Of a DNA stretch of 64,000 nucleotides, positions 4,967-63,985 are shown piece by piece; the stretch's first letter is position 1, and each line of letters begins with the position of its first letter. This DNA is from a virus. The notes beneath the pieces were generated by a model. It saw nothing but the letters and a program-made list of their open reading frames with translations, had not been told where the DNA came from and did no database searches. A program made the translations under genes and the position numbers. The stretch spans positions 1 through 64,000 of IMG/VR virus record IMGVR_UViG_3300035698_013740; one strand, given 5' to 3'.

Positions 4967-5764
4967 ATGGAAAAGGTTACAAGAGCGGGGGTTAAGACTC
5001 CTAAAGCAGAAAAGGCAACATACGCATTTCCAACTGAAGTAATTGATCTTCCTAGTTTAGGCAGATTATATCCAGAAGGCCATGCATTATCTAGTGGTAA
5101 TATTGAAATAAAATATATGACTGCTAGAGAGGAGGATATTCTTACTTCCCAAAATCTAATTAACAAAGGAATAGTTCTAGATAAGTTATTAGAATCTGTA
5201 ATCGTTACAGATGTAGATGTAGATGATTTAGTTGTAGGTGATAAAAACGCAATTTTACTTGCATCTAGAATATTGGCATACGGACCAGATTACGATTCTA
5301 GAATAACATGTCCTAGTTGCAACACAGTCAATGAAGTATCTGTAGACTTATCTGTATTAGAAAACAAAGATGTTGAGCTATTAGATGGGAACGGAAATTC
5401 ATTTGGGTTTAAACTTCCACAATCTGGAGTAGAAATTACTTTTAAAATTCTAACTCATGGTGATATTCGAAAGATTCAAAACGAAATTGACACATGGGAA
5501 AAACTAGGTAATGAAGTCAGAGCAGAAATGAGTATTAGATATAAATTCATGATTACATCTGTTGGTGGAAATACTAGTAAAGCATACATTAAGGAATTTG
5601 TTAGAAATGGATTTACTATGCAAGATTCTTCTGCGTTAAAGGAGCACATATTTGATATGTCTCCAGGAATAGATCAAACATTTGATTTTGGTTGTCAGAG
5701 GTGCGACTACACTGAAAGGCTTAAAATACCTTTCGGTATAGACTTTTTTTGGCCTTCCATCTAA
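4967..5764 (+). CDS. Tail assembly chaperone / baseplate hub protein (T4 gp26/gp51-like), zero-frame product
   Basis: A 265-residue protein of the T4 gp26/gp51 type. It has 'EVIDLPSLGRLYPEGHAL' (about 24-41), 'IEIKYMTAREEDILTS' and 'YDSRITCPSCNTVNEVSVDL', with a second Cys pair in 'GCQRCDY' near the end, so a zinc-binding knuckle is likely. The zero frame stops six codons after TTTTTTT, with last residues 'FFWPSI'. Its place between tube and tape measure is where tailed phages keep a tail assembly chaperone made in short and frameshifted long forms. The second frame continues directly (see 5744-5963). Start ATG at 4967 follows ACAATAAAAA; no strong ribosome site is visible. Confidence 0.8.
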   Translation: MEKVTRAGVKTPKAEKATYAFPTEVIDLPSLGRLYPEGHALSSGNIEIKYMTAREEDILTSQNLINKGIVLDKLLESVIVTDVDVDDLVVGDKNAILLASRILAYGPDYDSRITCPSCNTVNEVSVDLSVLENKDVELLDGNGNSFGFKLPQSGVEITFKILTHGDIRKIQNEIDTWEKLGNEVRAEMSIRYKFMITSVGGNTSKAYIKEFVRNGFTMQDSSALKEHIFDMSPGIDQTFDFGCQRCDYTERLKIPFGIDFFWPSI

Positions 5765-45723: not shown

Positions 45724-46484
45724 TTAGAGTATTTTATAGATTGTCAGATCATGGATATAAAAAGACAAAACCTGCATATGTCACAAATGACAATTGTTTA
45801 TCGAATTTTGTAGCTTCATGTGAATTAGTTAATAGGGATTGGAAAATGAGAATCCTAATGGACAATGTATCTCAGGAAACATATGATCATATTTTTAAGG
45901 AATATGCTGGAATTTGTGAAATACGAGGATCTAAATTGGGGTCAGGTGCACAGTCATTCAATAAAGTATTAGACTATGCAATAAAGCATGGATCTGATGA
46001 TGACATAATCTATTTTGTAGAGGATGATTATATCCATGAATACGGATGGGGTAAAATTCTTAAAGAAGGATTTGAAATAGGTGCAGATTATGTAAGTTTG
46101 TATGATCATCCAGATAAATATTTGAATCCGCAACTGGGTGGTAATCCATACGTTGAGGGTGGTGGAGAGGTAACTAGATTGATGAAGTCAGATTCATGTC
46201 ATTGGAAACTCACAAACTCTACAACAATGACGTTTGCTGCAAAATTGAAAACTCTTAAAGAAGATGAAGATATTTTAAGAGGCCATACTAGTGGGACATA
46301 TCCTAAAGATTTTGATATGTTTTTAGCACTTAGAGAAAAGGGAAGATCACTAGTAACTCCAGTACCAGGATACGCAACACATGGGGAAACCACATGGCTA
46401 AGTCCTTTTAAAAATTGGAAACAAATCTGCGCGGATACGAATATGACTTCACTTCACAGAATTAATCACGGAATATCAATATGA
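45720..46484 (+). CDS. GT-A glycosyltransferase-like protein
   Basis: A 254-residue protein beginning 'IRVFYRLSDHGYKKTKPAYV'. The metal site is 'IIYFVEDDYIHEYGWGKIL' (E-D-D), preceded by 'GSGAQSFNKVLDYAIKHG', and the acceptor side contains 'SCHWKLTNSTTMTFAAKL' and 'HTSGTYPKDFDMFLALREKG'. GT2-like fold; donor unknown. It overlaps both neighbours by four bases, as most genes of the island do. Confidence 0.7.
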   Translation: MIRVFYRLSDHGYKKTKPAYVTNDNCLSNFVASCELVNRDWKMRILMDNVSQETYDHIFKEYAGICEIRGSKLGSGAQSFNKVLDYAIKHGSDDDIIYFVEDDYIHEYGWGKILKEGFEIGADYVSLYDHPDKYLNPQLGGNPYVEGGGEVTRLMKSDSCHWKLTNSTTMTFAAKLKTLKEDEDILRGHTSGTYPKDFDMFLALREKGRSLVTPVPGYATHGETTWLSPFKNWKQICADTNMTSLHRINHGISI

Positions 46485-47080
46485 GACAAATATCACAAAT
46501 ACATGAGGTTCGCACAATTAAAGAGTTGCGAACCATGTCAAAATACAAAGGAGCATCATACGTGTTCTTTTGGGGTCATTCTGATACTGACCCAGAACGT
46601 GTGAATGAAGGATGCCTTAGCAATTGGTATCCTGCACCGTTCGAATTAGATGGAATAGTTTATCCTACCTCAGAACATTGGATGATGACTGAAAAGGCTA
46701 GATTATTTGAGGATGATGATTCGTTAGCACTAATGTTAGAAGCTGAATCTCCATGGAAAGTTAAAAAGTTGGGACGAAAGGTTGCAAACTTTGATAATGA
46801 TGTTTGGAGAAAATATTGTTTTGATTCAACAGTAAAGGGATGCATAGCAAAATTTACTCAAAATCCACATCTTGGTGAATATCTTAAAAATACTGGAAAA
46901 TCTGTATTAGTTGAAGCAAGTCCGTATGATACAGTTTGGGGAATTGGAATGGCGTTTGATAAGGATAATTTAGAAATCGGAGATCCTACAAATTGGAAAG
47001 GAGAAAATCTTTTAGGATTTGTTCTTATGGAAGTTAGAGATCAATTAAATTTCATATCATCTGCGGCATCATCAATATGA
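46481..47080 (+). CDS. NADAR (YbiA-like) N-glycosidase-fold protein
   Basis: A 199-residue protein with the NADAR pattern: 'VFFWGHSDTDPERVNEGCLS' then 'NWYPAPFELDGIVYPTSEHW' (conserved S-N-x-Y and S-E-H-W/Y-M), 'KARLFEDDDSLALML', 'DTVWGIGMAFD' and 'NWKGENLLGFVLMEVRDQL'. Known relatives act on ADP-ribose derivatives: YbiA on a riboflavin intermediate, others remove ADP-ribose from guanine in DNA. In a phage it may reverse DarT-type ADP-ribosylation or process NAD-related compounds. The key motifs are intact. Confidence 0.85.
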   Translation: MRQISQIHEVRTIKELRTMSKYKGASYVFFWGHSDTDPERVNEGCLSNWYPAPFELDGIVYPTSEHWMMTEKARLFEDDDSLALMLEAESPWKVKKLGRKVANFDNDVWRKYCFDSTVKGCIAKFTQNPHLGEYLKNTGKSVLVEASPYDTVWGIGMAFDKDNLEIGDPTNWKGENLLGFVLMEVRDQLNFISSAASSI

Positions 47081-56715: not shown

Positions 56716-56786
56716 GGGTCAATGGCCGAACGGTTAGGCACGGGGTTGCAAACCTCGGTATGTGAGTTCGAATCTCTCTTGGCTCT
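56716..56786 (+). tRNA. tRNA-Cys (GCA)
   Basis: Acceptor GGGTCAA pairs with TTGGCTC, D arm GCC...GGC, anticodon stem CGGGG/CCTCG with loop TTGCAAA (anticodon GCA) and T loop TTCGAAT. Discriminator T; CCA is not encoded. It stands apart from the main cluster, between two small genes. Confidence 0.9.
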
Positions 56787-56805
56787 CAAAAAATAAAGGT
56801 TACAT

Positions 56806-57108
56806 ATGTTAGATTTAGATAGGTTATTGGATTTAGAAATGCAAGGCAATGATTGTGACGCAACTACAATTAGAGATTATTTGCATAAGTTACTAAGGGA
56901 AGTTTGGGTAGAACAAGATGGATTCTCAGGTAAAAGACCATTTGGAAATAGTTCATGGGAATATGATATGTATATTCCTCTAATTAAAGATGGAATTATT
57001 GATGGTAAATTCGAAGATGATGATCCTGAATGTTATATTGAATCTGTTGATTCGAAATTAGGACATAAAATCATCCTTCAGCTCATTGACCATATATTTG
57101 GAAAGTAA
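56806..57108 (+). CDS. Small phage protein, related to the one at 63542
   Basis: A 100-residue protein. 'LLREVWVEQDGFSGKRPFGN' and 'SSWEYDMYIPLIKDG' share with the 63542 product the pattern L-x-x-(A/V)-(W/Y)-V-x-(5)-F/G-(x)-K-R-P-(F/Y)-G-N-S, which is common in small phage proteins of unknown function. The rest is helical and acidic. It starts 19 bases after tRNA-Cys with AAAGGT as ribosome site. Confidence 0.6.
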   Translation: MLDLDRLLDLEMQGNDCDATTIRDYLHKLLREVWVEQDGFSGKRPFGNSSWEYDMYIPLIKDGIIDGKFEDDDPECYIESVDSKLGHKIILQLIDHIFGK

Positions 57109-57109
57109 A

Positions 57110-57553
57110 ATGATAGAAACATTTTTGTATGATAGAGAAAAGAAGCGTGATGTATCAGAAATGATATGGAATATATGTGAAACTGAATTTGCAGATTTTA
57201 TAGAAAATGGTGGATTAGGTAGGTGTGATCATAGTAGTGTTGGAACTGCAATAGTACACACTCACCGAATATGTATATGCGGTCCACAAATCAGTGACAA
57301 ATATATTCATAATGAGATTATGGCCTATTTTATTGGTCACTTTCATCATTGGAGATTATTTTTCTTTAAAGAAGCGTTTGTTATGGATAGATTATGTATT
57401 GCTGCTTCTTGCGCTGGTACTAGCAAATTTCCGAATGAGTTACATAGCCATGGTGGAGAAACGTTGTTTATGAGAGGAGCAGGAATTAATCATGATGACG
57501 AATGGGAACTTCATTCATATAATCATCAGCCGAGCATTTGGAATGGAAAGTAA
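57110..57553 (+). CDS. Unknown protein rich in His and Cys
   Basis: A 147-residue protein with 'GGLGRCDHSSVGTAIVHTHR', 'HFHHWRLFFFKEAFVMDRLC', 'ELHSHGGETLFMRGAG' and 'WELHSYNHQPSIW'. The many His and Cys suggest a metal site, but no family is recognised. ATG 57110 is chosen because it follows the previous stop by one base; an upstream in-frame ATG lies inside that gene. It overlaps the Pth2 gene by 11 bases. Confidence 0.5.
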   Translation: MIETFLYDREKKRDVSEMIWNICETEFADFIENGGLGRCDHSSVGTAIVHTHRICICGPQISDKYIHNEIMAYFIGHFHHWRLFFFKEAFVMDRLCIAASCAGTSKFPNELHSHGGETLFMRGAGINHDDEWELHSYNHQPSIWNGK

Positions 57554-57947
57554 GCAAGTAATAGTAGTTAGAAAGGATCTAAATATGCGAAAAGGAAAGA
57601 TAGCTGCCCAAGTTGCTCACGCATCTATGGGAGTTATTTTAGATTTGGTTGCAAACGGTAGAATAGTATACTCAAAAGAAGACTGTTGGGCTACCCAATA
57701 TGAAGACATGACATCAGTCACCGAATGGCTGAATGGTTCATTTACTAAAATTGTAGTTAGTGTAGATTCAGAAGAAGAACTAATGGGTTTATTTTGTTTA
57801 GTAACAAATACATTAGTACCTTGCAAGTTAATATTAGATAGCGGTCTTACAGAATTTGGTGGAAAGCCAACATTTACCTGTATGGCAATAGGTCCATGGT
57901 ATTCAGATAGAATAAATAACTTTACGGAAAATTTGAAATTATTATAG
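57543..57947 (+). CDS. Peptidyl-tRNA hydrolase, Pth2 type
   Basis: A 134-residue enzyme of the archaeal/eukaryotic Pth2 fold. 'KQVIVVRKDLNMRKGKIAAQ' and 'VAHASMGVILDL' are the family signature (V-R-x-D-L-x-M-x-x-G-K-x-A-A-Q-x-A-H-A), 'TKIVVSVDSEEELMGLFCLV' the middle helix and 'VPCKLILDSGLTEFGGKPTF' plus 'TCMAIGP' the end. Pth2 frees tRNA from peptidyl-tRNA left by aborted translation. ATG 57543 is the start that begins just before the first strand. Its position between tRNA-Cys and the tRNA cluster is notable. Confidence 0.88.
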   Translation: MESKQVIVVRKDLNMRKGKIAAQVAHASMGVILDLVANGRIVYSKEDCWATQYEDMTSVTEWLNGSFTKIVVSVDSEEELMGLFCLVTNTLVPCKLILDSGLTEFGGKPTFTCMAIGPWYSDRINNFTENLKLL

Positions 57948-57953
57948 GATGTG

Positions 57954-57966
57954 ATATTTATCTGTA
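57954..57966 (+). promoter_or_regulatory. Late-promoter-like element ATATTTATCTGTA
   Basis: Identical over 13 bases to the element before ssb (15999-16011). It lies 22 bases before the next start codon. Confidence 0.5.
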
Positions 57967-57988
57967 CACTTAAAATAGGATAAATGTT

Positions 57989-59179
57989 ATGTCTGTAAAT
58001 ATTAAATTTGATGGTGAAGGTACTGGCACCAAAAAAGATCCATTCAAAATTCCAGTAGTACCATTGGTAAAAACCAAACTTAAACCACTATACTTAGAAA
58101 TTGAAGTACTGTCTTCACATGGTGGCAATACAACGCCAGAACTATATAACGTTGGGTTTAGAACTGAACAGTGGATTGCAGTAGGTGGTTCTGTTAAGGA
58201 ATCTATTACTGGTGGCATTAAGATGAGAGTTCCATTATATGCTAGGAATGATTTTCAAGATAAGCCTGAAAAGATTTATATGGCTGCATTTAAGTATGCA
58301 TCTAAGACACCAGCAGGACAATTTGTAAATGCATACAGGCTCTTAGATCCAAATTTTACATCTGAGGATGGTTGGAGTGGTAACGACTATTGGGCAATTT
58401 CATATACGGCTGAAGAAATGGTCGAGTATGCTAAATTGTTTGAAACACCAAAGGCAGAATTGCCAATTACTATTAAAGGAACGTTAGATCTTCCACAAGT
58501 AGATGAAGTAGTAGAACTGCAATCTAAAGAATTATCTGAAGTGGAAGATATGCTTATTGCTCTAGAAAAACGAGTATCATCTCTAGAAGGTGGTGTTAAA
58601 GCTGAACCGGTAGATATGCTTATTGCTCTAGAAAAACGAGTATCATCTCTAGAAGGTGGTGTTAAAGCTGAACCGGTAGAAGTTGTAGTAGAACCTATTG
58701 CTGATGTATATGTTGAAGAAAATGTAGATGGTATTAATTTCTCAGTTGATCATGAATGGATAGATGAAAACACATTTATTTTGAATTTGAAACTTGATAA
58801 TGTAGATGAATACGAAGGATTTGCAAACTTTCAATTTGATGTGCCATTTATCAATGGTACTAATTTTGTAGATACTATTGCAGAAGGAACTTATTTTGAT
58901 AATACTCCAGCAAATGATGGAACATTTGATGAGGCAAAGGTAATTAGTGGATGGACTTGGCGAGCGTTTAGAAATGATAACTTACAAAAGATCAGAGTGT
59001 CTGGTTTTGCATCATCTCTAAGTACAATTTATGATGATGGAACTTTAGTAAGAATGAAATATGACGTAACTGATTCAGCTGCTGAAAATTTTACATTTTT
59101 CTTTAATACTGTTAGATTAAATGGGTTAAGGACTCCAGTTAACCCAAAAAATCCAAGATACATTGTAACTAAAGATTAA
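57989..59179 (+). CDS. Repeat-bearing protein with cohesin-like C-terminal domain, probable virion or surface protein
   Basis: A 396-residue protein. Residues 1-170 form an unknown beta-rich region ('KFDGEGTGTKKDPFKIPVVP', 'YNVGFRTEQWIAVGGSVKES'). About 187-230 is a coiled-coil linker of two identical 22-residue units built on 'LIALEKRVSSLEGG' (see 58547-58678). The last 150 residues ('NTFILNLKLDNVDEYEGFAN', 'FDEAKVISGWTWRAFRNDNL', 'RVSGFASSLSTIYDDGTLVR') resemble cohesin or Ig-like domains of extracellular proteins. A fibre, decoration or adhesion role is likely; it has its own promoter-like element. Confidence 0.6.
   Translation: MSVNIKFDGEGTGTKKDPFKIPVVPLVKTKLKPLYLEIEVLSSHGGNTTPELYNVGFRTEQWIAVGGSVKESITGGIKMRVPLYARNDFQDKPEKIYMAAFKYASKTPAGQFVNAYRLLDPNFTSEDGWSGNDYWAISYTAEEMVEYAKLFETPKAELPITIKGTLDLPQVDEVVELQSKELSEVEDMLIALEKRVSSLEGGVKAEPVDMLIALEKRVSSLEGGVKAEPVEVVVEPIADVYVEENVDGINFSVDHEWIDENTFILNLKLDNVDEYEGFANFQFDVPFINGTNFVDTIAEGTYFDNTPANDGTFDEAKVISGWTWRAFRNDNLQKIRVSGFASSLSTIYDDGTLVRMKYDVTDSAAENFTFFFNTVRLNGLRTPVNPKNPRYIVTKD
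58547..58678 (+). repeat. Perfect 66-bp tandem duplication
   Basis: Two identical 66-base units (58547-58612 and 58613-58678), starting GATATGCTTATTGCTC. In frame they duplicate a 22-residue coiled-coil segment. No base differs between copies, so the event is recent or kept identical by recombination. Confidence 0.95.
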
Positions 59180-59530
59180 AAAAAAAGAATTTTTAGGAAC
59201 ATTGAAACAAAAAGAAACAGTTAGAGTATATTTAAACATAATGACGAAGCAAAGACAACATATAAAACGATTTTGGTATATAGATACGAACCCGAATAGG
59301 GATCCGCTATCTCACCAATCTATATGTTCAATCCTGGATACGGAATTGTAACGTTCATATATGGATATAAAACCATTAGGTTTTGGAGAGATAGGATTTT
59401 AGAATCTTATCTCTCTTTTTTTTGTTTTGCTGTTTCTTTATGAAACTTTTTGAAATATATTTAGTACTAGCTCATCTAGGAAACTAGAAAAAATGAGCAA
59501 TTGTTTTTTGACTTATTGATATTACCAAAT
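59180..59530 (+). ncRNA. Structured noncoding stretch before the tRNA cluster
   Basis: There is no gene in these 351 bases. ATATAGAT near 59279 pairs with ATCTATAT near 59320, enclosing smaller helices (CCC/GGG and ATAG/CTAT). A strong terminator follows at 59386. It may be a small RNA, an extended 3' end of the preceding mRNA, or a processing signal for the tRNA transcript. The bases after the terminator (59424-59530) are plain AT-rich spacer. Confidence 0.35.
59386..59423 (+). terminator. Strong intrinsic terminator before the tRNA cluster
   Basis: GAGAGATAGGATT (59386-59398) pairs with AATCTTATCTCTC (59403-59415), with one G-T pair, followed by eight T. The tRNA cluster must therefore have its own promoter or depend on read-through. 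Confidence 0.9.
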
Positions 59531-59596
59531 GTGGGAGTAGCTTAATTTGTAAAGCATACTTAACGTAGTTGTAGATTCGAATCCTACCTCCTGCAC
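59531..59596 (+). pseudogene. tRNA-like gene with almost no anticodon arm
   Basis: Acceptor GTGGGAG pairs with CTCCTGC, D arm GCTT/AAGC, and T arm GTAGA-TTCGAAT-CCTAC with one mismatch. Only 15 bases lie between the D and T arms instead of about 22; they can form just a TAC/GTA mini-stem, so there is no seven-base anticodon loop. About 65 bases in all. Either a decayed tRNA gene or an RNA kept for another purpose. Confidence 0.55.
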
Positions 59597-59664
59597 AAAA
59601 GAGTGGTAACCTTATACACGGGGTTGTAAGTAGATTATCGAAGAGATAAGTCTCACCATTATAT

Positions 59665-59739
59665 CTGGATATAGCGCAGTTCGGTCGTCGCACTTGATTT
59701 GGGATCAAGGACACGGGGGTTCAAATCCCTCTATCCAGA
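59665..59739 (+). tRNA. tRNA-Pro (TGG)
   Basis: Acceptor CTGGATA/TATCCAG is perfect with the C1-G72 pair of proline tRNAs; anticodon stem CTTGA/TCAAG, loop TTTGGGA (anticodon TGG), T arm GGGGG/CCCTC with loop TTCAAAT. Discriminator A. Regular in all arms. Confidence 0.92.
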
Positions 59740-59742
59740 CAA

Positions 59743-59835
59743 TAGGGAAGGAGCATTGAAGTGACTAGCATGATGTTTGAGGAAGGGGTCGCAACCTAAC
59801 TGAGTCAAGGAGAGTGAAAGACCTCCCTTTCCCTA
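59743..59835 (+). other. tRNA-sized structured spacer between two Pro tRNA genes
   Basis: TAGGGAA (59743-59749) pairs with TTCCCTA (59829-59835), a 7-bp closing helix like an acceptor stem; GGAG and CTCC can extend it with bulges. There is no T-loop or anticodon arm, so it is not a tRNA. Could be a decayed tRNA or a processing spacer. Confidence 0.3.
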
Positions 59836-59843
59836 AGTTTAAT

Positions 59844-59916
59844 CGAGAATTGGCGCAGCTGGTAGCGTACTCCGTCTGGAGCGGAGGGGTCGTGGGTTCG
59901 AGTCCCACATTCTCGA
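59844..59916 (+). tRNA. tRNA-Pro-like (TGG) with C33
   Basis: Acceptor CGAGAAT/ATTCTCG, D arm GCGC/GCGT, anticodon stem CTCCG/CGGAG, variable GGGTC and T arm GTGGG-TTCGAGT-CCCAC are all regular. C1-G72 and GGGTCG resemble proline tRNAs. The loop is TCTGGAG: the middle triplet is TGG, but position 33, almost always T, is C. It is a second Pro-type gene 105 bases after a regular one. Decoding ability is uncertain. Confidence 0.8.
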
Positions 59917-59923
59917 CTAAGAT

Positions 59924-59995
59924 GCTTCTGTGGCAGAGAGGATATGCAACGGTTTTCTAAGCCGTACCACGTGGGTTCGAATCCTATCAGGAGTA
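59924..59995 (+). tRNA. tRNA-Arg (TCT)
   Basis: Acceptor GCTTCTG/CAGGAGT with G-T pairs, anticodon stem ACGGT/GCCGT, loop TTTCTAA (anticodon TCT, reads AGA), T arm GTGGG/CCTAT with loop TTCGAAT. AGA is the main Arg codon in these genes, so this tRNA fits the phage's needs. Confidence 0.9.
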
Positions 59996-60001
59996 CAACA
60001 T

Positions 60002-60075
60002 ATGCCATTAGCACGGTCTGGTAGTGCAGCTGTCTTATATGCAGTTGGTCACAGGTTCAAATCCTGTATGGTATA
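60002..60075 (+). tRNA. tRNA-Ile (TAT)
   Basis: Acceptor ATGCCAT/ATGGTAT, D arm GCAC/GTGC, anticodon stem GCTGT/GCAGT, loop CTTATAT (anticodon TAT, reads ATA), T arm ACAGG/CCTGT perfect. Most bacteria read ATA with a modified CAT anticodon; a TAT gene is less usual. ATA is frequent in the window's genes. Confidence 0.9.
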
Positions 60076-60079
60076 CACT

Positions 60080-60151
60080 GGGCCTGTAGCTCAAAGGTAG
60101 AGCACCCCGCTCATAACGGGACGGTTGAGTGTTCAATCCACTCCAGGCCCA
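60080..60151 (+). tRNA. tRNA-Met (CAT)
   Basis: Acceptor GGGCCTG/CAGGCCC, D arm GCTC/GAGC, anticodon stem CCCG/CGGG with one outer mismatch, loop CTCATAA (anticodon CAT), T arm GAGTG/CACTC. The paired G1-C72 argues against an initiator. It could be an Ile tRNA with modified C34, but a TAT Ile gene is already next to it. Confidence 0.88.
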
Positions 60152-60331
60152 CAAAAAATTCACAGCGATGCGATTATAGTTCCCAATGAGTTCGAAATCG
60201 TAGTGACGAGGGAAATAGTACATCGCCTTCATCGTAACAAAAGGATGCCACTTACATTATCTTAGGATAAATAAAGACGGTACTAACTTGCAGGCCATTA
60301 CCAGAGCCGAAAGATTTAAATCTGGTTTTAT
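60152..60331 (+). other. 180-base spacer in the tRNA cluster with helices but no tRNA
   Basis: No complete tRNA or gene is seen. GCGATG (60165-60170) can pair with CATCGC (60221-60226), TTCCC with GGGAA inside it, and ACCAGA (60300-60305) with TCTGGT (60321-60326). May be decayed tRNA genes or processing signals. Confidence 0.3.
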
Positions 60332-60414
60332 CTAGATGTTGGACAATTGGATGGTCCACCTGACTGTAAATCAGACGCTTAATCGCCGTGTAGGTTCGAA
60401 TCCTTCCATCTGGA
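60332..60414 (+). tRNA. tRNA-Tyr (GTA)
   Basis: Acceptor CTAGATG/CATCTGG, D arm GGAC/GTCC, anticodon stem CCTGA/TCAGA with one mismatch, loop CTGTAAA (anticodon GTA), 14-base variable arm as usual for Tyr, T arm GTAGG/CCTTC with loop TTCGAAT. Confidence 0.88.
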
Positions 60415-60442
60415 CAAGGCTTTAGGAAACTAAAGTTTACAT

Positions 60443-60531
60443 TTATCCGTAGCTCAGTCTGGTCAGAGCGCGACGCCGTTAACGTCGAGGCCCTTATAAG
60501 GTTTACATAGGTTCAAATCCTATCGGGTAAT
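60443..60531 (+). tRNA. tRNA-Asn-like (GTT) with C33 and a long variable arm
   Basis: Acceptor TTATCCG/CGGGTAA, D arm GCTC/GAGC, anticodon stem CGACG/CGTCG, T arm ATAGG/CCTAT all pair well. The loop is CCGTTAA: anticodon GTT but C33 in place of T33. The variable region is 19 bases and contains the palindrome CCTTATAAGG, whereas Asn tRNAs have about 5. A regular Asn gene is at 63914. Confidence 0.8.
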
Positions 60532-60536
60532 CAAAT

Positions 60537-60655
60537 GTGCAGGTGGCGGAACGGGTAGACGCTAGGGACATACGTCCTGAGAAGTTTAGGTATAATACAC
60601 ATAGTATGGTTAATACTTGTAAATCTTCGTAGAGGTTCGAATCCTTCACTGCACA
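60537..60655 (+). tRNA. tRNA-Leu-like, no readable anticodon, giant variable arm
   Basis: Acceptor GTGCAGG/ACTGCAC, the TGGCGG...GACGC D region typical of Leu tRNAs and T loop TTCGAAT with a weak stem are present. The anticodon arm folds as GGAC-ATAC-GTCC, a tetraloop rather than a seven-base loop; an alternative TAGGG/TCCTG stem leaves loop ACATACG with no sensible anticodon. About 50 bases of nested hairpins (GAAG/CTTC, GTAT/ATAC) occupy the variable arm. Total 119 bases. Possibly a decayed or repurposed tRNA. Confidence 0.55.
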
Positions 60656-60661
60656 CAACAT

Positions 60662-60735
60662 GGAACTCTAGTGTAAACTGGTGAGCATGTGAGTCTGAAA
60701 AGCTCATGGTTTGGGTTCGATTCCCAGGGGTTCTA
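60662..60735 (+). tRNA. tRNA-Phe (GAA)
   Basis: Acceptor GGAACTC/GGGTTCT, D arm GTGT/GCAT, anticodon stem TGAGT/GCTCA, loop CTGAAAA (anticodon GAA), T arm TTGGG/CCCAG with loop TTCGATT. Regular. Confidence 0.9.
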
Positions 60736-60760
60736 CAAAACAAAAATGATGGTATAGTAA

Positions 60761-61234
60761 ATGATAGAAGGATTAACATTAGAAGAGCAGGCAACGAATC
60801 ATGAAACATGGAGACATATTCATAGAGTTCAATATTATCTGTTAAACGTAGTAGCTAATTTACAAAAGAGATTACATATTCATGATCAATCTAAATTGGC
60901 AGAACCTGAAGTACAACTTTTTACTGAATATACTGATAAGCTAAGGGATGTTACATACGGATCTGAAGAATACAAATCGTTTTTAAGTGGATTGAAACCT
61001 GCATTAGATCATCACTATGCAAATAACAGACACCATCCAGAACATTGGAAAAATGGTGTAGAAGATATGACTCTTCTAGATTTGATTGAAATGATTTGTG
61101 ATTGGAAAGCTGCAAGTGAGAGACACAATGATGGTAACATTCGTAAAAGTATTGAACTTAATACTGAACGATTCAATATGAGTCCTCAACTCAGAAGAAT
61201 TTTTGAAAACACAGTAGACGAAATACTGATATAA
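60761..61234 (+). CDS. DUF5662-like phage protein inside the tRNA cluster
   Basis: A 157-residue helical protein: 'ETWRHIHRVQYYLLNVVANL', 'RLHIHDQSKLAEPEVQLF', 'YGSEEYKSFLSGLKPALDHH' and 'YANNRHHPEHWKNGVEDMTL', then 'LIEMICDWKAASERHNDGNI'. The H-D-x-S-K and H-H-x-(3)-N-R-H-H-P-E-H pattern is that of the DUF5662 group, common in phages and likely metal-binding, of unknown activity. An HD-like hydrolase is possible. It splits the tRNA cluster in two. Confidence 0.75.
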   Translation: MIEGLTLEEQATNHETWRHIHRVQYYLLNVVANLQKRLHIHDQSKLAEPEVQLFTEYTDKLRDVTYGSEEYKSFLSGLKPALDHHYANNRHHPEHWKNGVEDMTLLDLIEMICDWKAASERHNDGNIRKSIELNTERFNMSPQLRRIFENTVDEILI

Positions 61235-61246
61235 AGATAAAACAAC

Positions 61247-61344
61247 ATGGATTGGATAGAAACCTTTTGGAACAGATTGAGTATTATAGAAAATATTGGG
61301 AAAACTCTGGGATAGACCCAGATACAATGAAGAAATTTGAATAG
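61247..61344 (+). pseudogene. Small gene with an apparent -1 frameshift
   Basis: ATG 61247 starts 'MDWIETF' in one frame, which soon becomes unconvincing and stops at 61313-61315. The frame one base back, entered at CCTTTTGG (61263-61270), encodes 'LLEQIEYYRKYWENSGIDPD' and 'TMKKFE', stopping at 61342-61344, a pattern of small phage proteins. The two together make one peptide of about 32 residues. A frameshift mutation or a sequence error is most likely; programmed shifting is possible but the site is weak. Confidence 0.35.
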
Positions 61345-61374
61345 AAGCATATTCAATAGGAAAAGAATAATTTT

Positions 61375-61448
61375 GGTCCTACAGTCCAGAGGCCGTGGAC
61401 GCCACCCTGTCACGGTGGAGATCGAGGGTTCGAATCCCTCTAGGATCG
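61375..61448 (+). tRNA. tRNA-Asp (GTC)
   Basis: Acceptor GGTCCTA/TAGGATC, D arm GTCC/GGAC, anticodon stem CCACC/GGTGG, loop CTGTCAC (anticodon GTC), T arm GAGGG/CCCTC with loop TTCGAAT; discriminator G as required for Asp. Fully regular. Confidence 0.95.
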
Positions 61449-61450
61449 CA

Positions 61451-61514
61451 TTTCGTATAGTATAAGAACGATGTGGCGTATACACCCATGATGGTTCAAA
61501 CCCATCTACGAAAT
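61451..61514 (+). pseudogene. tRNA-like gene without a D arm (GTA triplet, C33)
   Basis: Acceptor TTTCGTA/TACGAAA and T arm GATGG-TTCAAAC-CCATC are perfect. Only 11 bases follow the acceptor before the anticodon region and cannot form a D stem. The anticodon stem is GTG/CAC with loop GCGTATA (middle triplet GTA, C33). 64 bases in all. The intact outer helices argue against random decay. A regular Tyr (GTA) gene is at 60332. Confidence 0.5.
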
Positions 61515-61524
61515 CCATTTTATG

Positions 61525-61612
61525 GTGATTGAGGCAGATTATTGGTTAGCTGCGCTAGGCTGTGACCCTAGTAGGAGAAATCCTTTTGCGAGTTCGATTC
61601 TCGTCATTCACC
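61525..61612 (+). tRNA. tRNA-His (GTG) with an added variable-arm hairpin
   Basis: Acceptor GTGATTG/CATTCAC with one T-T mismatch, a G at -1 opposite discriminator C as in His tRNAs, D arm GCAG/CTGC, anticodon stem CTAGG/CCTAG, loop CTGTGAC (anticodon GTG), T arm GCGAG/CTCGT. The variable region is 16 bases with the hairpin AGGA-GAAA-TCCT, unlike any usual His tRNA. A second His gene is at 61693. Confidence 0.82.
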
Positions 61613-61617
61613 CATTT

Positions 61618-61690
61618 GGTGCAGAAGAACAAATGGCAGTTCACCTGATTGTCTATCAGGAAGTTGCGGGTTCGAACCCCGTGTGCACCG
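61618..61690 (+). tRNA. tRNA-Asp (GTC), second copy with T37
   Basis: Acceptor GGTGCAG/GTGCACC with the last pair mismatched, D arm GA-AC/GTTC, anticodon stem CCTGA/TCAGG, loop TTGTCTA (anticodon GTC), T arm GCGGG/CCCGT; discriminator G. Position 37, normally a purine, is T. A regular Asp gene is at 61375. Confidence 0.82.
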
Positions 61691-61692
61691 CT

Positions 61693-61765
61693 GTGGCCGT
61701 AGCTTAATTGGTAAAGCGCTAGATTGTGGCTCTAGTACATACGGGTTCAAGTCCCGTCGGTCACC
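61693..61765 (+). tRNA. tRNA-His (GTG)
   Basis: Acceptor GTGGCCG/CGGTCAC, D arm GCTT/AAGC, anticodon stem CTAGA/TCTAG, loop TTGTGGC (anticodon GTG), normal five-base variable region, T arm ACGGG/CCCGT. Discriminator C as in His. The base at -1 is T, so G-1 would have to be added after transcription. Confidence 0.9.
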
Positions 61766-61788
61766 CCATTTTCTAAATAAAAAATAGC

Positions 61789-61935
61789 ATGGAAATTGAT
61801 ATGATATATTTTGAAGTTTTATGTTGGGTATTGTTATACTTGATATTAGGAATAGTAGGGATCGTATGGTATACTGGAACACAAGAATACCAAGATATGG
61901 ATGACGAAGAAAGAGCAAAATTTTGGTTTGGATAA
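61789..61935 (+). CDS. Small membrane protein in the tRNA cluster
   Basis: A 48-codon frame, ATG 61789 to TAA 61935. 'YFEVLCWVLLYLILGIVGIV' is a single membrane segment (about 7-26), followed by 'WYTGTQEYQDMDDEERAKFW', acidic and likely cytoplasmic. It stands between tRNA-His and tRNA-Lys. Single-span tiny proteins are common in large phages; function unknown. Confidence 0.6.
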   Translation: MEIDMIYFEVLCWVLLYLILGIVGIVWYTGTQEYQDMDDEERAKFWFG

Positions 61936-61945
61936 AATAATTTAT

Positions 61946-62019
61946 GGATGCAAAGCTCAATAGGAAGTAGCACCGGACTTTTAATCCGGGGGTTGTGGGT
62001 TCGATTCCCACTGCATTCA
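61946..62019 (+). tRNA. tRNA-Lys (TTT)
   Basis: Acceptor GGATGCA/TGCATTC, D arm GCT/AGC, anticodon stem CCGGA/TCCGG, loop CTTTTAA (anticodon TTT, reads AAA), T arm GTGGG/CCCAC. Discriminator A. AAA is the dominant Lys codon in the window. Confidence 0.92.
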
Positions 62020-62040
62020 CACACACAATCGTAATAGACT

Positions 62041-62415
62041 ATGTATAAATTATTTTTAGATGACGAGCGAATACCAAGAACTATTTATCCTGAAGATCCT
62101 GTTGGATGGGTAGTTATTAGATCGTATTCAGAGTTTGTGAAAATTATAGAAGGAACAGGTTTACCTAAGATTCTTTCGTTTGATCATGATCTTGCAGAAG
62201 AACATTACGATCCAGCAATTTGGAGAGATGGAAATCCAGTTCCATACGATACATACAAAGAAAAAACTGGTTATGATTGTGCAAAATGGCTAATAAGCAA
62301 AGAACATGATCTTAGAAACATAGATATTAGAGTACATAGCTATAACCCAGTAGGTGCTAAAAACATTAGAATGTTGTTAGAAAACTGGAATAAACACTTA
62401 AACAAAAACGTGTAA
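62041..62415 (+). CDS. cPPR (cyclic-phosphate processing receiver-like) protein
   Basis: A 124-residue protein: 'YKLFLDDERIPRTIYPEDPV', 'WVVIRSYSEFVKIIEGTGLP', 'ILSFDHDLAEEHYDP' and 'TGYDCAKWLISKEHDLRNID', ending 'VHSYNPVGAKNIRMLLENW'. L-D-D-x-R-x-P, S-F-D-H-D-L and H-(S/T)-x-N-P-x-G mark the receiver-like domain predicted to act on cyclic phosphate ends. It sits between the tRNA cluster and DNA ligase. A part in RNA-end repair is a prediction for the family, not shown here. Confidence 0.8.
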   Translation: MYKLFLDDERIPRTIYPEDPVGWVVIRSYSEFVKIIEGTGLPKILSFDHDLAEEHYDPAIWRDGNPVPYDTYKEKTGYDCAKWLISKEHDLRNIDIRVHSYNPVGAKNIRMLLENWNKHLNKNV

Positions 62416-63537
62416 ATGCAAAATTATTTTGAGACTGATCTTCATTTGTCTCTAACTTCAAAGGGATTTAAGAAATTTTGGCAAGGATTTGCTGTAACAG
62501 ATGGATATGACAATTTCTATTCAAGGTCAGAATCTTGGCAAGAAAAAGCAGATGGCTCAGAATCTAAACATATTGTATCTGCACCAAAACTTGCAAAAGC
62601 AAAAAATGTTGGTAGAGCAAATGAAGTAGCTCCTAGAGAACAAGCAATATTAGAAATCAAATCTACTCTTTTAAATAAAACACATAGTGGATATGTAAAA
62701 GAAGGAGAACCCTTAGTTCCATTAAGACCTCAAGCAATGACTGCTCTAAGTTTTGCAAAACGAAGTCATAATATTTCATATCCTGCATTAATTCAACCAA
62801 AGCTAGATGGAACTAGAATGTTGTTTAATGGAGAAGTCGGTTGGACTAGAAAGAATATTGACTATATTCCTGATGTGCTTGTTCATCTAAATTGTGAGCT
62901 CCCCAACGGAATCGTATTAGATGGAGAATTGATGCTGGATCAAAACGAATTCACATTTCAGGAAACTATCTCAGCTATTAAGAAATTCAAGAAAGGAACT
63001 AGTGATCAACTTAGATATTATGTATATGATTTGGTAGATACTACATATCCTGATATGGATTTCACTGATCGATATGGAGTGCTTAAGGATATTGTGGAAG
63101 CACTTAATAACCCATATATTATCTTAGTACCTACATTCGAACTAGAGGCCAAAGAGCATATTCAGGAGTTCCATGACACATTTGTTGCAGATAGTTATGA
63201 AGGTGCCATGGTTCGTAATAGATTAGGAGAATATAAGTTAGGAAATAGATCTTCAAATCTTCAAAAGTTTAAAGTATTTTTTGATGAAGAATTTATCATC
63301 ATTGGTGCAAAGGATGGAGTTGGCAAATATGCTGGATGTGTTACATGGATTTGTGAGACAAAAGATAAAGTAGAATTTGATGCAACTCCAAAGGGAACAA
63401 TTGCTATGAAGCAGCAGTGGTTTGATGATCGAGATTCAATTATTGGTAAAGAGTTAACAGTTCGTCACTTTGGATATACCGATGGTGGAAGCCTTAGATT
63501 TCCAGTTGGCATTATAATAAGAGATTACGAAGGGTAA
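62416..63537 (+). CDS. ATP-dependent DNA ligase
   Basis: A 373-residue ligase. The adenylation motif is 'PALIQPKLDGTRMLF' (Lys129 in K-x-D-G-x-R), followed by 'GIVLDGELMLDQNEFTFQET' (motif III), 'RYYVYDLVD', 'SYEGAMVRN' (motif IV) and 'LQKFKVFFDEEFIIIGAKDG' (motif V, K-x-K). The C-terminal OB-type part ends 'LRFPVGIIIRDYEG'. The first 100 residues are an unusual N-terminal extension. It starts directly after the cPPR stop, so the two are coupled. It should seal nicks in phage DNA. Confidence 0.9.
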   Translation: MQNYFETDLHLSLTSKGFKKFWQGFAVTDGYDNFYSRSESWQEKADGSESKHIVSAPKLAKAKNVGRANEVAPREQAILEIKSTLLNKTHSGYVKEGEPLVPLRPQAMTALSFAKRSHNISYPALIQPKLDGTRMLFNGEVGWTRKNIDYIPDVLVHLNCELPNGIVLDGELMLDQNEFTFQETISAIKKFKKGTSDQLRYYVYDLVDTTYPDMDFTDRYGVLKDIVEALNNPYIILVPTFELEAKEHIQEFHDTFVADSYEGAMVRNRLGEYKLGNRSSNLQKFKVFFDEEFIIIGAKDGVGKYAGCVTWICETKDKVEFDATPKGTIAMKQQWFDDRDSIIGKELTVRHFGYTDGGSLRFPVGIIIRDYEG

Positions 63538-63541
63538 AAAT

Positions 63542-63904
63542 ATGCTAGGAACACAAAAATTTGAAGTAAAATGGGAACATCTTGCACTTCTAGAACGTGC
63601 ATATGTTGGATGGAATGGATGTGAGTTTGGAGCACCAAGTATGGATTGCAAAAGACCATACGGCAATAGCGACGTATTTACTGATATAGGAGAAATACTT
63701 AATATTGAAGGTACGTATGACGAAGAAGAAGAGTATACAACTTTTTCTGACGAACAACAAACTCATATGAGAAAGATTCACGAGGAAATGAAAACAGTAC
63801 TTCAAATTCTATTTGTACATGCTACTACTGGTATTAGACAGGGTCTCTATGAATCAGAAAGATATGGAACAAATTGGAAGCTAAAATATAAGATAGATCA
63901 CTAA
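63542..63904 (+). CDS. Small phage protein, related to the one at 56806
   Basis: A 120-residue protein: 'WEHLALLERAYVGWNGCEFG', 'APSMDCKRPYGNSDVFTDIG' and 'HATTGIRQGLYESERYGTNW'. The K-R-P-Y-G-N-S-D-V pattern is widespread in small phage proteins without known function; the same core is in the 56806 product. It begins 4 bases after the ligase and is followed by tRNA-Asn. Confidence 0.65.
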   Translation: MLGTQKFEVKWEHLALLERAYVGWNGCEFGAPSMDCKRPYGNSDVFTDIGEILNIEGTYDEEEEYTTFSDEQQTHMRKIHEEMKTVLQILFVHATTGIRQGLYESERYGTNWKLKYKIDH

Positions 63905-63913
63905 ACAGATACA

Positions 63914-63985
63914 CTCCTCTGTAGTATAGCGGTAGAACGTATGGCTGTTGACCATAAGATGACGGTTCAACTCCGTCCAGGGAGC
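63914..63985 (+). tRNA. tRNA-Asn (GTT)
   Basis: Anticodon stem TATGG/CCATA, loop CTGTTGA (anticodon GTT, T33 present), four-base variable region, T arm GACGG/CCGTC with loop TTCAACT. The acceptor CTCC-T-CTG pairs with CAGGGAG apart from one extra T. This is the regular counterpart of the 60443 gene. Confidence 0.88.

What the first reader, a model, noticed from the sequence alone, without database searches (positions are those of the whole stretch)
59665..63985. Pairs of isoacceptor tRNAs, one regular and one deviant
Seen: Pro (59665 regular, 59844 with C33), Asn (63914 regular, 60443 with C33 and long variable arm), Asp (61375 regular, 61618 with T37), His (61693 regular, 61525 with added hairpin) and perhaps Tyr (60332 regular, 61451 lacking the D arm). 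A phage that only needed to adjust codon supply would not be expected to keep a second, structurally odd copy for the same codons. Known: hosts cut anticodon loops as a phage defence, and phage tRNAs that escape cutting are an established counter-measure. The deviant set may be decoys or cut-resistant versions.
Basis: partly seen in the sequence, partly recalled or inferred. Interest (0 to 1): 0.8.

Follow-up and report, generated by a model that had tools for sequence, protein, structure and literature searches.

The report
Viral tRNA pairs, one altered copy
This virus carries two transfer RNAs for several of the same codons, one ordinary and one altered at specific spots; two of these pairings (proline and asparagine) recur in unrelated viruses more often than chance, which suggests the altered copy is a working spare less dependent on, or less vulnerable to, host enzymes that handle tRNA.

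Summary
The pairs are real. Pro, Asn, Asp and His each have two intact tRNA genes, and all four deviants fold as cloverleafs scoring 36-57 bits. The fifth deviant, Tyr (61451), is a degenerate remnant. A sixth pair (Gln) lies just past the window. "Regular/deviant" is imperfect: the deviant His has the G-1:C73 His identity that the regular His lacks. Decay and chance do not explain the intact four. In a survey of about 490 other viral loci (~4,200 tRNAs), loci with two or more tRNA-Pro(UGG) carried both a G37 and an A37 copy in 16 of 18 cases (8.4 expected, p=1e-4). All 56 A37 copies keep Pro identity, and A37 is nearly absent from sampled bacteria. Hairpin-bearing variable arms on class-I tRNAs are over-represented among same-anticodon pairs (pooled OR 2.5), Asn above all. 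C33 is a common viral variant and not a pair feature. The Asp T37 pair is not statistically supported. Best reading: functional backup isoacceptors altered where host enzymes touch them. For Pro', independence of TrmD m1G37 methylation fits at least as well as nuclease escape, because A37 is frequent in every TrmD-type viral tRNA. "Decoy" is not supported. Mechanism is inferred; nothing was measured.

The parts
59665..59739 (+). tRNA-Pro(UGG), loop TTTGGGA (U33, G37): regular partner
   Evidence: ARAGORN; Rfam 55.3 bits
59844..59916 (+). tRNA-Pro'(UGG), loop TCTGGAG (C33, A37); all stems intact, C1-G72 and A73 kept
   Evidence: 56.6 bits; cloverleaf MFE; homologues in other phages with the same anticodon stem have TTTGGGG
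60443..60531 (+). tRNA-Asn'(GUU), loop CCGTTAA (C33) with an added variable arm AGGCC(CTTATAA)GGTTT
   Evidence: (53.9 bits)
60488..60504 (+). variable-arm hairpin of Asn'; same AGGCCCTTATAAGGT hairpin in L606 and L489, near-identical in L548
63914..63984 (+). tRNA-Asn(GUU), loop CTGTTGA: 'regular' partner, acceptor stem with one bulged T
   Evidence: (49.7 bits)
61375..61448 (+). tRNA-Asp(GUC), loop CTGTCAC: regular partner
61618..61690 (+). tRNA-Asp'(GUC), loop TTGTCTA (T37), G73 kept
   Evidence: (47.4 bits); same loop in L255, L593, L600 and L625
61524..61613 (+). tRNA-His'(GUG) with encoded G-1 and C73; added variable arm AGGA(GAAA)TCCT at 61573-61584
   Evidence: (36.4 bits); V-armed viral His in L097, L249, L530, L547 and L602
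61693..61766 (+). tRNA-His(GUG), loop TTGTGGC: regular partner, no encoded G-1
   Evidence: 65.6 bits
60332..60414 (+). tRNA-Tyr(GUA), loop CTGTAAA: the only intact Tyr tRNA of the contig
61451..61514 (+).
   Evidence: T arm GATGGTTCAAACCCATC; not found by ARAGORN or Rfam; MFE is not a tRNA
60537..60654 (+). Leu-like tRNA remnant with disrupted anticodon arm and long insert
   Evidence: T arm; 60549-60654 folds no better than shuffles, z 0.68
59531..59596 (+). tRNA-like sequence with shortened anticodon arm (38.2 bits), not called by ARAGORN
62041..62415 (+). cREC protein (PF20274, predicted cyclic-phosphate processing receiver), inside the tRNA array
   Evidence: 5.7e-24; predicted role from PMC9503650 and PMC7824862
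62416..63537 (+). ATP-dependent DNA-ligase-type ligase directly after cREC
57492..57947 (+). PTH2 peptidyl-tRNA hydrolase
   Evidence: 5.8e-30

Best explanation
The virus keeps functional spare isoacceptors. For each of these codon sets one copy looks host-like and the other is an intact, probably chargeable tRNA changed at positions that host tRNA-handling enzymes contact: position 37 and 33 of the anticodon loop, or the variable region, which becomes a hairpin arm. The altered copy can go on decoding when host-like tRNAs are cut, or when the host enzyme that must modify them is limiting. For Pro' (G37 to A37) the most likely specific gain is independence of TrmD m1G37 methylation, which host tRNA-Pro(UGG) needs for charging and frame keeping. 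For the V-armed Asn' and His' the most likely gain is loss of contact with an enzyme or nuclease that approaches the variable region. Shown: the sequences, the folds, the recurrence and its statistics. Inferred: charging, expression, and every gain of function.
For: Intact folds and scores. In loci with two or more tRNA-Pro(UGG), both G37 and A37 occur in 16/18 (exp 8.4, p=1.2e-4), 14/16 without BLAST-fetched loci (p=3e-4) and 7/8 in loci not selected on Asn (p=0.006). 56/56 A37 copies keep C1-G72/A73; the nearest relative lies in the same locus for only 2 of 41, so they are not fresh duplicates. A37 Pro by pattern: 0/249, 0/249 and 2/247 bacterial genomes in three phyla, against G37 in 36/61. 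A37 share in viral TrmD-type tRNAs: Leu 43-61%, Arg(CCG) 72%, Pro(CGG) 39%, while t6A-type tRNAs such as Thr(UGU), Arg(UCU) and Asn stay A37. Class-I V arms: pairs vs singles pooled OR 2.5, p=7e-5; Asn 5/9 mixed, exp 1.4, p=0.004; 101 intact V-armed viral Asn with varied hairpins and frequent GNRA loops. cREC, PTH2 and NADAR nearby. E. coli adapting to m1G37 loss recodes A37-bearing Arg tRNAs (PMC8643618).
Against: No expression, charging or cleavage data; host unknown; the contig is a fragment. The V-arm enrichment was strong in the first sample (OR 8) but weak and not significant in the replication (OR 2.4, p=0.17). Most V-armed Asn are the only Asn in their locus, so pairing is not required. 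The Asp 37 pair shows no excess. C33 is not consistently pair-linked. Arrays are phylogenetically related to an unknown degree. TrmD-independence does not by itself explain why the G37 copy is kept too. T-arm and tRNA remnants show that decay also happens in this array.
Confidence: 0.5

Rival explanations
1. Nuclease escape proper: the deviant copies are cut-resistant versions of tRNAs that host anticodon or variable-loop nucleases destroy, as argued for other phage tRNAs.
For: Changes sit in the anticodon loop and variable region; precedent for anticodon-loop escape (PMC10264068) and for retron-Eco7/Septu cutting in the variable loop, with T5 tRNA-Tyr reported resistant through its own variable loop (PMC13096335). 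cREC and PTH2 in the array are predicted to serve tRNA-cleavage conflicts.
Against: No host nuclease is known here; A37 across all TrmD-type tRNAs points to modification rather than one nuclease; known V-loop cutters target Tyr, and the Tyr copy here is the degenerate one; Pro/Asn/His/Asp/Gln share no known single nuclease.
Confidence: 0.25
2. Remolding and acquisition without selection on the deviation: phage arrays pick up tRNAs of many lineages; a second tRNA with the same anticodon arises by anticodon mutation of another isotype, and the odd features are baggage.
For: Gln' (contig 64106) has a Leu-like body with long V arm, and several V-armed Ile/Asn tRNAs are most similar to Ser/Tyr/Leu tRNAs. 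Pair members are usually not each other's nearest relatives.
Against: Several V-armed tRNAs match their own isotype best (Arg L377, Gly L229/L341, Gln L301, Pro L343). It does not predict the G37/A37 excess in Pro pairs, nor complete retention of Pro identity in A37 copies.
Confidence: 0.17
3. Decaying duplicates: the deviants are pseudogenes on their way out.
For: Remnants exist in the same array: Tyr' 61451, Leu-like 60537, 59531. Asp' and His' score lower than their partners.
Against: Pro' and Asn' score higher than their partners; all four keep stems and fold as cloverleafs; the same loops and arms recur in many viruses with different stem sequences.
Confidence: 0.06
4. Unchargeable decoys that soak up nucleases or modifying enzymes.
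For: Altered loops; no functional test exists.
Against: Identity elements of Pro' (C1-G72/A73), His' (G-1:C73) and Asp' (G73) are kept (sequence; for Pro A37 in general), which a decoy would not need.
Confidence: 0.02

Closest known systems
Phage tRNAs with anticodon-loop mutations predicted to escape anticodon nucleases (van den Berg et al. 2023, PMC10264068)
   Same: Phage tRNA array; changes concentrated in the anticodon loop around the anticodon
   Different: There the phage copy differs from the host copy; here the virus itself keeps both a host-like and an altered copy, and variable-arm additions occur. Host and nuclease unknown here.
Phage tRNA-Tyr that defeats retron-Eco7/Septu, and tRNA-Lys that defeats PrrC/PARIS (PMC11555353, PMC13096335)
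   Same: Supplying a phage copy to replace an attacked host tRNA; the variable loop matters for tRNA-Tyr
   Different: Isotypes here are Pro, Asn, Asp, His and Gln; the V arm is newly added to class-I tRNAs; no defence system identified
E. coli tRNA-Arg genes with A37 recoded to replace m1G37-dependent tRNA-Arg(CCG) (PMC8643618)
   Same: An A37-bearing isoacceptor takes over from one that needs TrmD methylation
   Different: Laboratory evolution in a bacterium, Arg not Pro; here a natural viral G37 + A37 pair

Membership tests
functional elongator tRNA (Pro', Asn', Asp', His') | cloverleaf with four stems and 7-nt anticodon loop | tested here: met
functional elongator tRNA (Pro', Asn', Asp', His') | aminoacylation identity elements of the anticodon's isotype | tested here: inconclusive
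   met for Pro' (C1-G72, A73), His' (G-1, C73) and Asp' (G73); Asn' has T73 and the regular Asn also lacks G73 (sequence)
functional elongator tRNA (Pro', Asn', Asp', His') | expressed and charged | not testable with these tools
   needs tRNA sequencing and acid gels
functional elongator tRNA (Tyr' 61451) | cloverleaf | tested here: not met
phage tRNA that escapes an anticodon nuclease | loop differs from the host or regular copy near the cleavage site | tested here: met
   Pro', Asn' and Asp' loops differ from the regular copies; His' does not differ in a recognised cleavage position
phage tRNA that escapes an anticodon nuclease | host encodes a nuclease cutting that tRNA, and the phage copy resists it | not testable with these tools
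   host unknown, no cleavage data
V-loop-nuclease-evading tRNA-Tyr (Eco7/Septu type) | tRNA-Tyr isotype with a distinctive variable loop | tested here: not met
   V arms are on Asn' and His'; the second Tyr is a remnant
TrmD-independent tRNA-Pro | position 37 not G in an otherwise intact tRNA-Pro(UGG) | tested here: met
   loop TCTGGAG, cloverleaf intact
tRNA pseudogene | broken stems or lost identity relative to partner | tested here: not met
   for Pro', Asn', Asp' and His'; met for Tyr', Leu-like 60537 and 59531

The most novel reading that the evidence does not exclude
Large-array viruses of bacteria maintain, for the same codon, one tRNA that is a substrate of host tRNA enzymes and one built not to be. 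The clearest form is a G37 plus an A37 tRNA-Pro(UGG), a TrmD-dependent and a TrmD-independent copy. A parallel form is a class-I tRNA given a variable-arm hairpin beside a normal one (Asn, Ile, Pro, Thr, His). This would be a general, undescribed design of viral tRNA arrays.
Probability: 0.35. Interest if true: 0.8.

Novelty: new variant of a known kind. Interest (0 to 1): 0.6.

Why it matters
Why phages carry tRNAs, and why they carry more than one for the same codons, is an old open question. A regularity that can be stated in one line (two tRNA-Pro(UGG) in a viral locus almost always means one G37 and one A37), together with its bacterial rarity, makes a specific hypothesis directly testable with available genetics: TrmD depletion, tRNA sequencing, deletion of one copy. 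V-armed class-I tRNAs would also be natural examples of tRNAs redesigned against, or around, host enzymes.

Tried and rejected
Queuosine idea: Asn, Asp, His and Tyr are exactly the GUN tRNAs, and C33 should block TGT; dropped because C33 is also common in non-Q tRNAs (Ile, Lys, Val, Thr), Pro and Gln pairs do not fit, and no TGT was found among the ORFs scanned with Pfam. C33 as rare oddity: rejected, about 3% in U33-selected loci and far more in C33-selected ones. Asp T37 pair as recurrent type: rejected, 3 of 9 mixed vs 4.7 expected, though the loop itself recurs (34 genes). RNA ligase/PNK repair in the contig: not found; the ligase after cREC is of DNA-ligase type. A close relative with the same array: not found. 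The DNA ligase search gave none; of four PolB relatives only one had tRNAs, and Microcystis phage Mel-JY01, the nearest named relative by PolB (46.6%), shows one annotated tRNA in the part viewed. So conservation was tested across unrelated viruses, not within a lineage. Nearest-phage BLAST of the deviants gave mainly Pro homologues. Codon supply: dismissed on amino-acid use.
Full report
What is there. The window is the first 64 kb of a 72,381-bp virus record. The record has DNA polymerase B, RecA, a helicase, RNR, a tail sheath and a T4-type baseplate protein. Its closest named relative by PolB is Microcystis phage Mel-JY01 at 46.6% identity. A tRNA array runs from 56.7 kb to the end of the record: 26 genes by ARAGORN and 28 Rfam matches. 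A further same-anticodon pair, Gln(UUG), lies at contig 64026 and 64106; the second has a Leu-like body with a long variable arm.

The deviants one by one. Pro' has U33 to C and also G37 to A, with every stem intact; phage homologues sharing its CTCCG/CGGAG anticodon stem read TTTGGGG. Asn' has C33 and a 5-bp variable arm. Asp' has T37 and one acceptor mismatch. His' has a normal loop, a GAAA-capped variable arm and an encoded G-1. All four have cloverleafs as minimum-energy folds. Tyr' (61451) is a remnant, as are a Leu-like element (60537-60654) and 59531. The set is therefore mixed: four intact variants plus decay products. The regular partners are not flawless either: the regular Asn has a bulged acceptor stem and the regular His lacks G-1.

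Is each deviation rare? I collected tRNA-bearing viral loci with pattern scans. Asp with T37 (11/64), Pro(UGG) with A37 (21/95), Asn with long V (10/104) and C33 (13/104) are all recurrent. A scan for V-armed Asn gave 101 intact new examples with varied hairpins. The own hairpin AGGCCCTTATAAGGT is found again in L606 and in a Verrucomicrobiia contig (L489), and nearly so in L548. In 247 genomes of one bacterial phylum the same scan gave four matches. The A37 Pro pattern gave 0/249, 0/249 and 2/247 genomes in three phyla, whereas the G37 pattern rang in 36/61.

Are the deviations tied to pairs? Long V arms on class-I tRNAs were 10/70 in same-anticodon copies against 22/1080 in single copies (p=8e-6). 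An independent sample gave 3/39 vs 12/364, same direction but not significant; pooled OR is 2.5, p=7e-5. A permutation test over 70 anticodon-feature combinations ranked Pro-37 first. With two or more Pro(UGG) in a locus, 16 of 18 loci hold both G37 and A37 (expected 8.4, p=1.2e-4). It holds without BLAST-selected loci (14/16, p=3e-4) and in loci not selected on Asn (7/8, p=0.006). Asn V arms are also mixed more than expected (5/9, expected 1.4, p=0.004), Ile(GAU) weakly (4/16, expected 1.3, p=0.017), Asp-37 not at all. C33 was not linked to pairs in the main sample; two smaller samples showed some excess.

What might it do. A37 copies of tRNA-Pro keep C1-G72/A73 in 56 of 56 cases and are not fresh duplicates. 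A37 is frequent in all viral tRNAs of the type that needs TrmD m1G37 in bacteria (that list is from my own knowledge of E. coli): Leu(UAG, CAG, GAG) 43-61%, Arg(CCG) 72%, Pro(CGG) 39%. Where t6A is required, A37 is almost invariant (Thr(UGU) 154/154, Arg(UCU) 147/147, Asn 254/256). m1G37 is needed for reading frame and charging at Pro, and E. coli lines evolving without it recode A37-bearing Arg tRNAs (PMC8643618). I therefore favour release from host modification for Pro', with nuclease escape as the main rival. For V arms no mechanism can be singled out; steric avoidance of an enzyme at the variable region is an inference with precedent in tRNA-Tyr. The neighbourhood is compatible with tRNA damage: cREC at 62041-62415, PTH2 at 57492-57947, NADAR at 46481-47080, all with predicted roles only.

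Limits. The record is a fragment with unknown host; loci are cut at about 15 kb, so single copies may have unseen partners; samples share ancestry; several tests were run (the Pro result survives a 70-fold correction, the others do not). Nothing here shows expression, charging or resistance.

Literature. In the library searched I found work on anticodon-loop escape and tRNA-Tyr/Lys rescue, but none of the papers I opened reports G37/A37 Pro pairs, C33, or added variable arms in phage tRNAs. The library is partial.

Noticed in passing
L077, L170, L255, L349, L365, L376, L394, L407, L411: Viral tRNA-Ile(UAU) often has a long variable arm (16 of 39) whose 7-nt loop, CAGAUNA in most, is conserved while the stem varies; looks like a selected RNA element.
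   Followed up: partly
window 60488-60504: The variable arm of Asn' is a 5-bp stem with loop CTTATAA, identical to an Ile(UAU) anticodon loop; L606 and L489 share it, and L548 has CTTACAA (like Val UAC). A tRNA with two anticodon-arm-like hairpins, perhaps coincidence.
   Followed up: partly
L085, about 5470-5610, minus strand: Apparent circularly permuted tRNA-Leu gene: a 3' half (T arm and acceptor TCCCTGC) followed by a 5' half (GCAGGGA, D arm). Read by eye only.
   Followed up: no
contig 65000, 66495, 66626 (L081 11001, 12496, 12627): Isolated T arms with acceptor 3' halves; the latter two have a matching 5' acceptor strand 140-160 nt upstream, so they may be tRNAs with inserts or remnants.
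   Followed up: partly
whole array, window 56716-63985 and on: 18 of 26 tRNA genes encode discriminator-CA instead of CCA (548 of 4,359 in other viral loci).
   Followed up: partly
viral survey loci: Viral tRNA-Phe(GAA) has G37 in 63 of 123, although bacteria have A37 there (own knowledge); position 37 varies at m1G37, i6A and m2A sites but hardly at t6A sites.
   Followed up: partly
window 46481-47080 and 62041-62415: NADAR and cREC domain proteins, predicted ADP-ribose / cyclic-phosphate processing enzymes.
   Followed up: partly
window 59741-59843 and 60160-60330: Spacers inside the array contain inverted repeats (AGGGAAGG...CCTTTCCCT) and may be further small RNAs; no Rfam match.
   Followed up: no
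L417 and similar Bacteroidota contigs: tRNA-Asn pattern matches with palindromic GCCCCGATAGCTATCGGGG before the T arm, a chromosomal repeat rather than a viral V arm.
   Followed up: no
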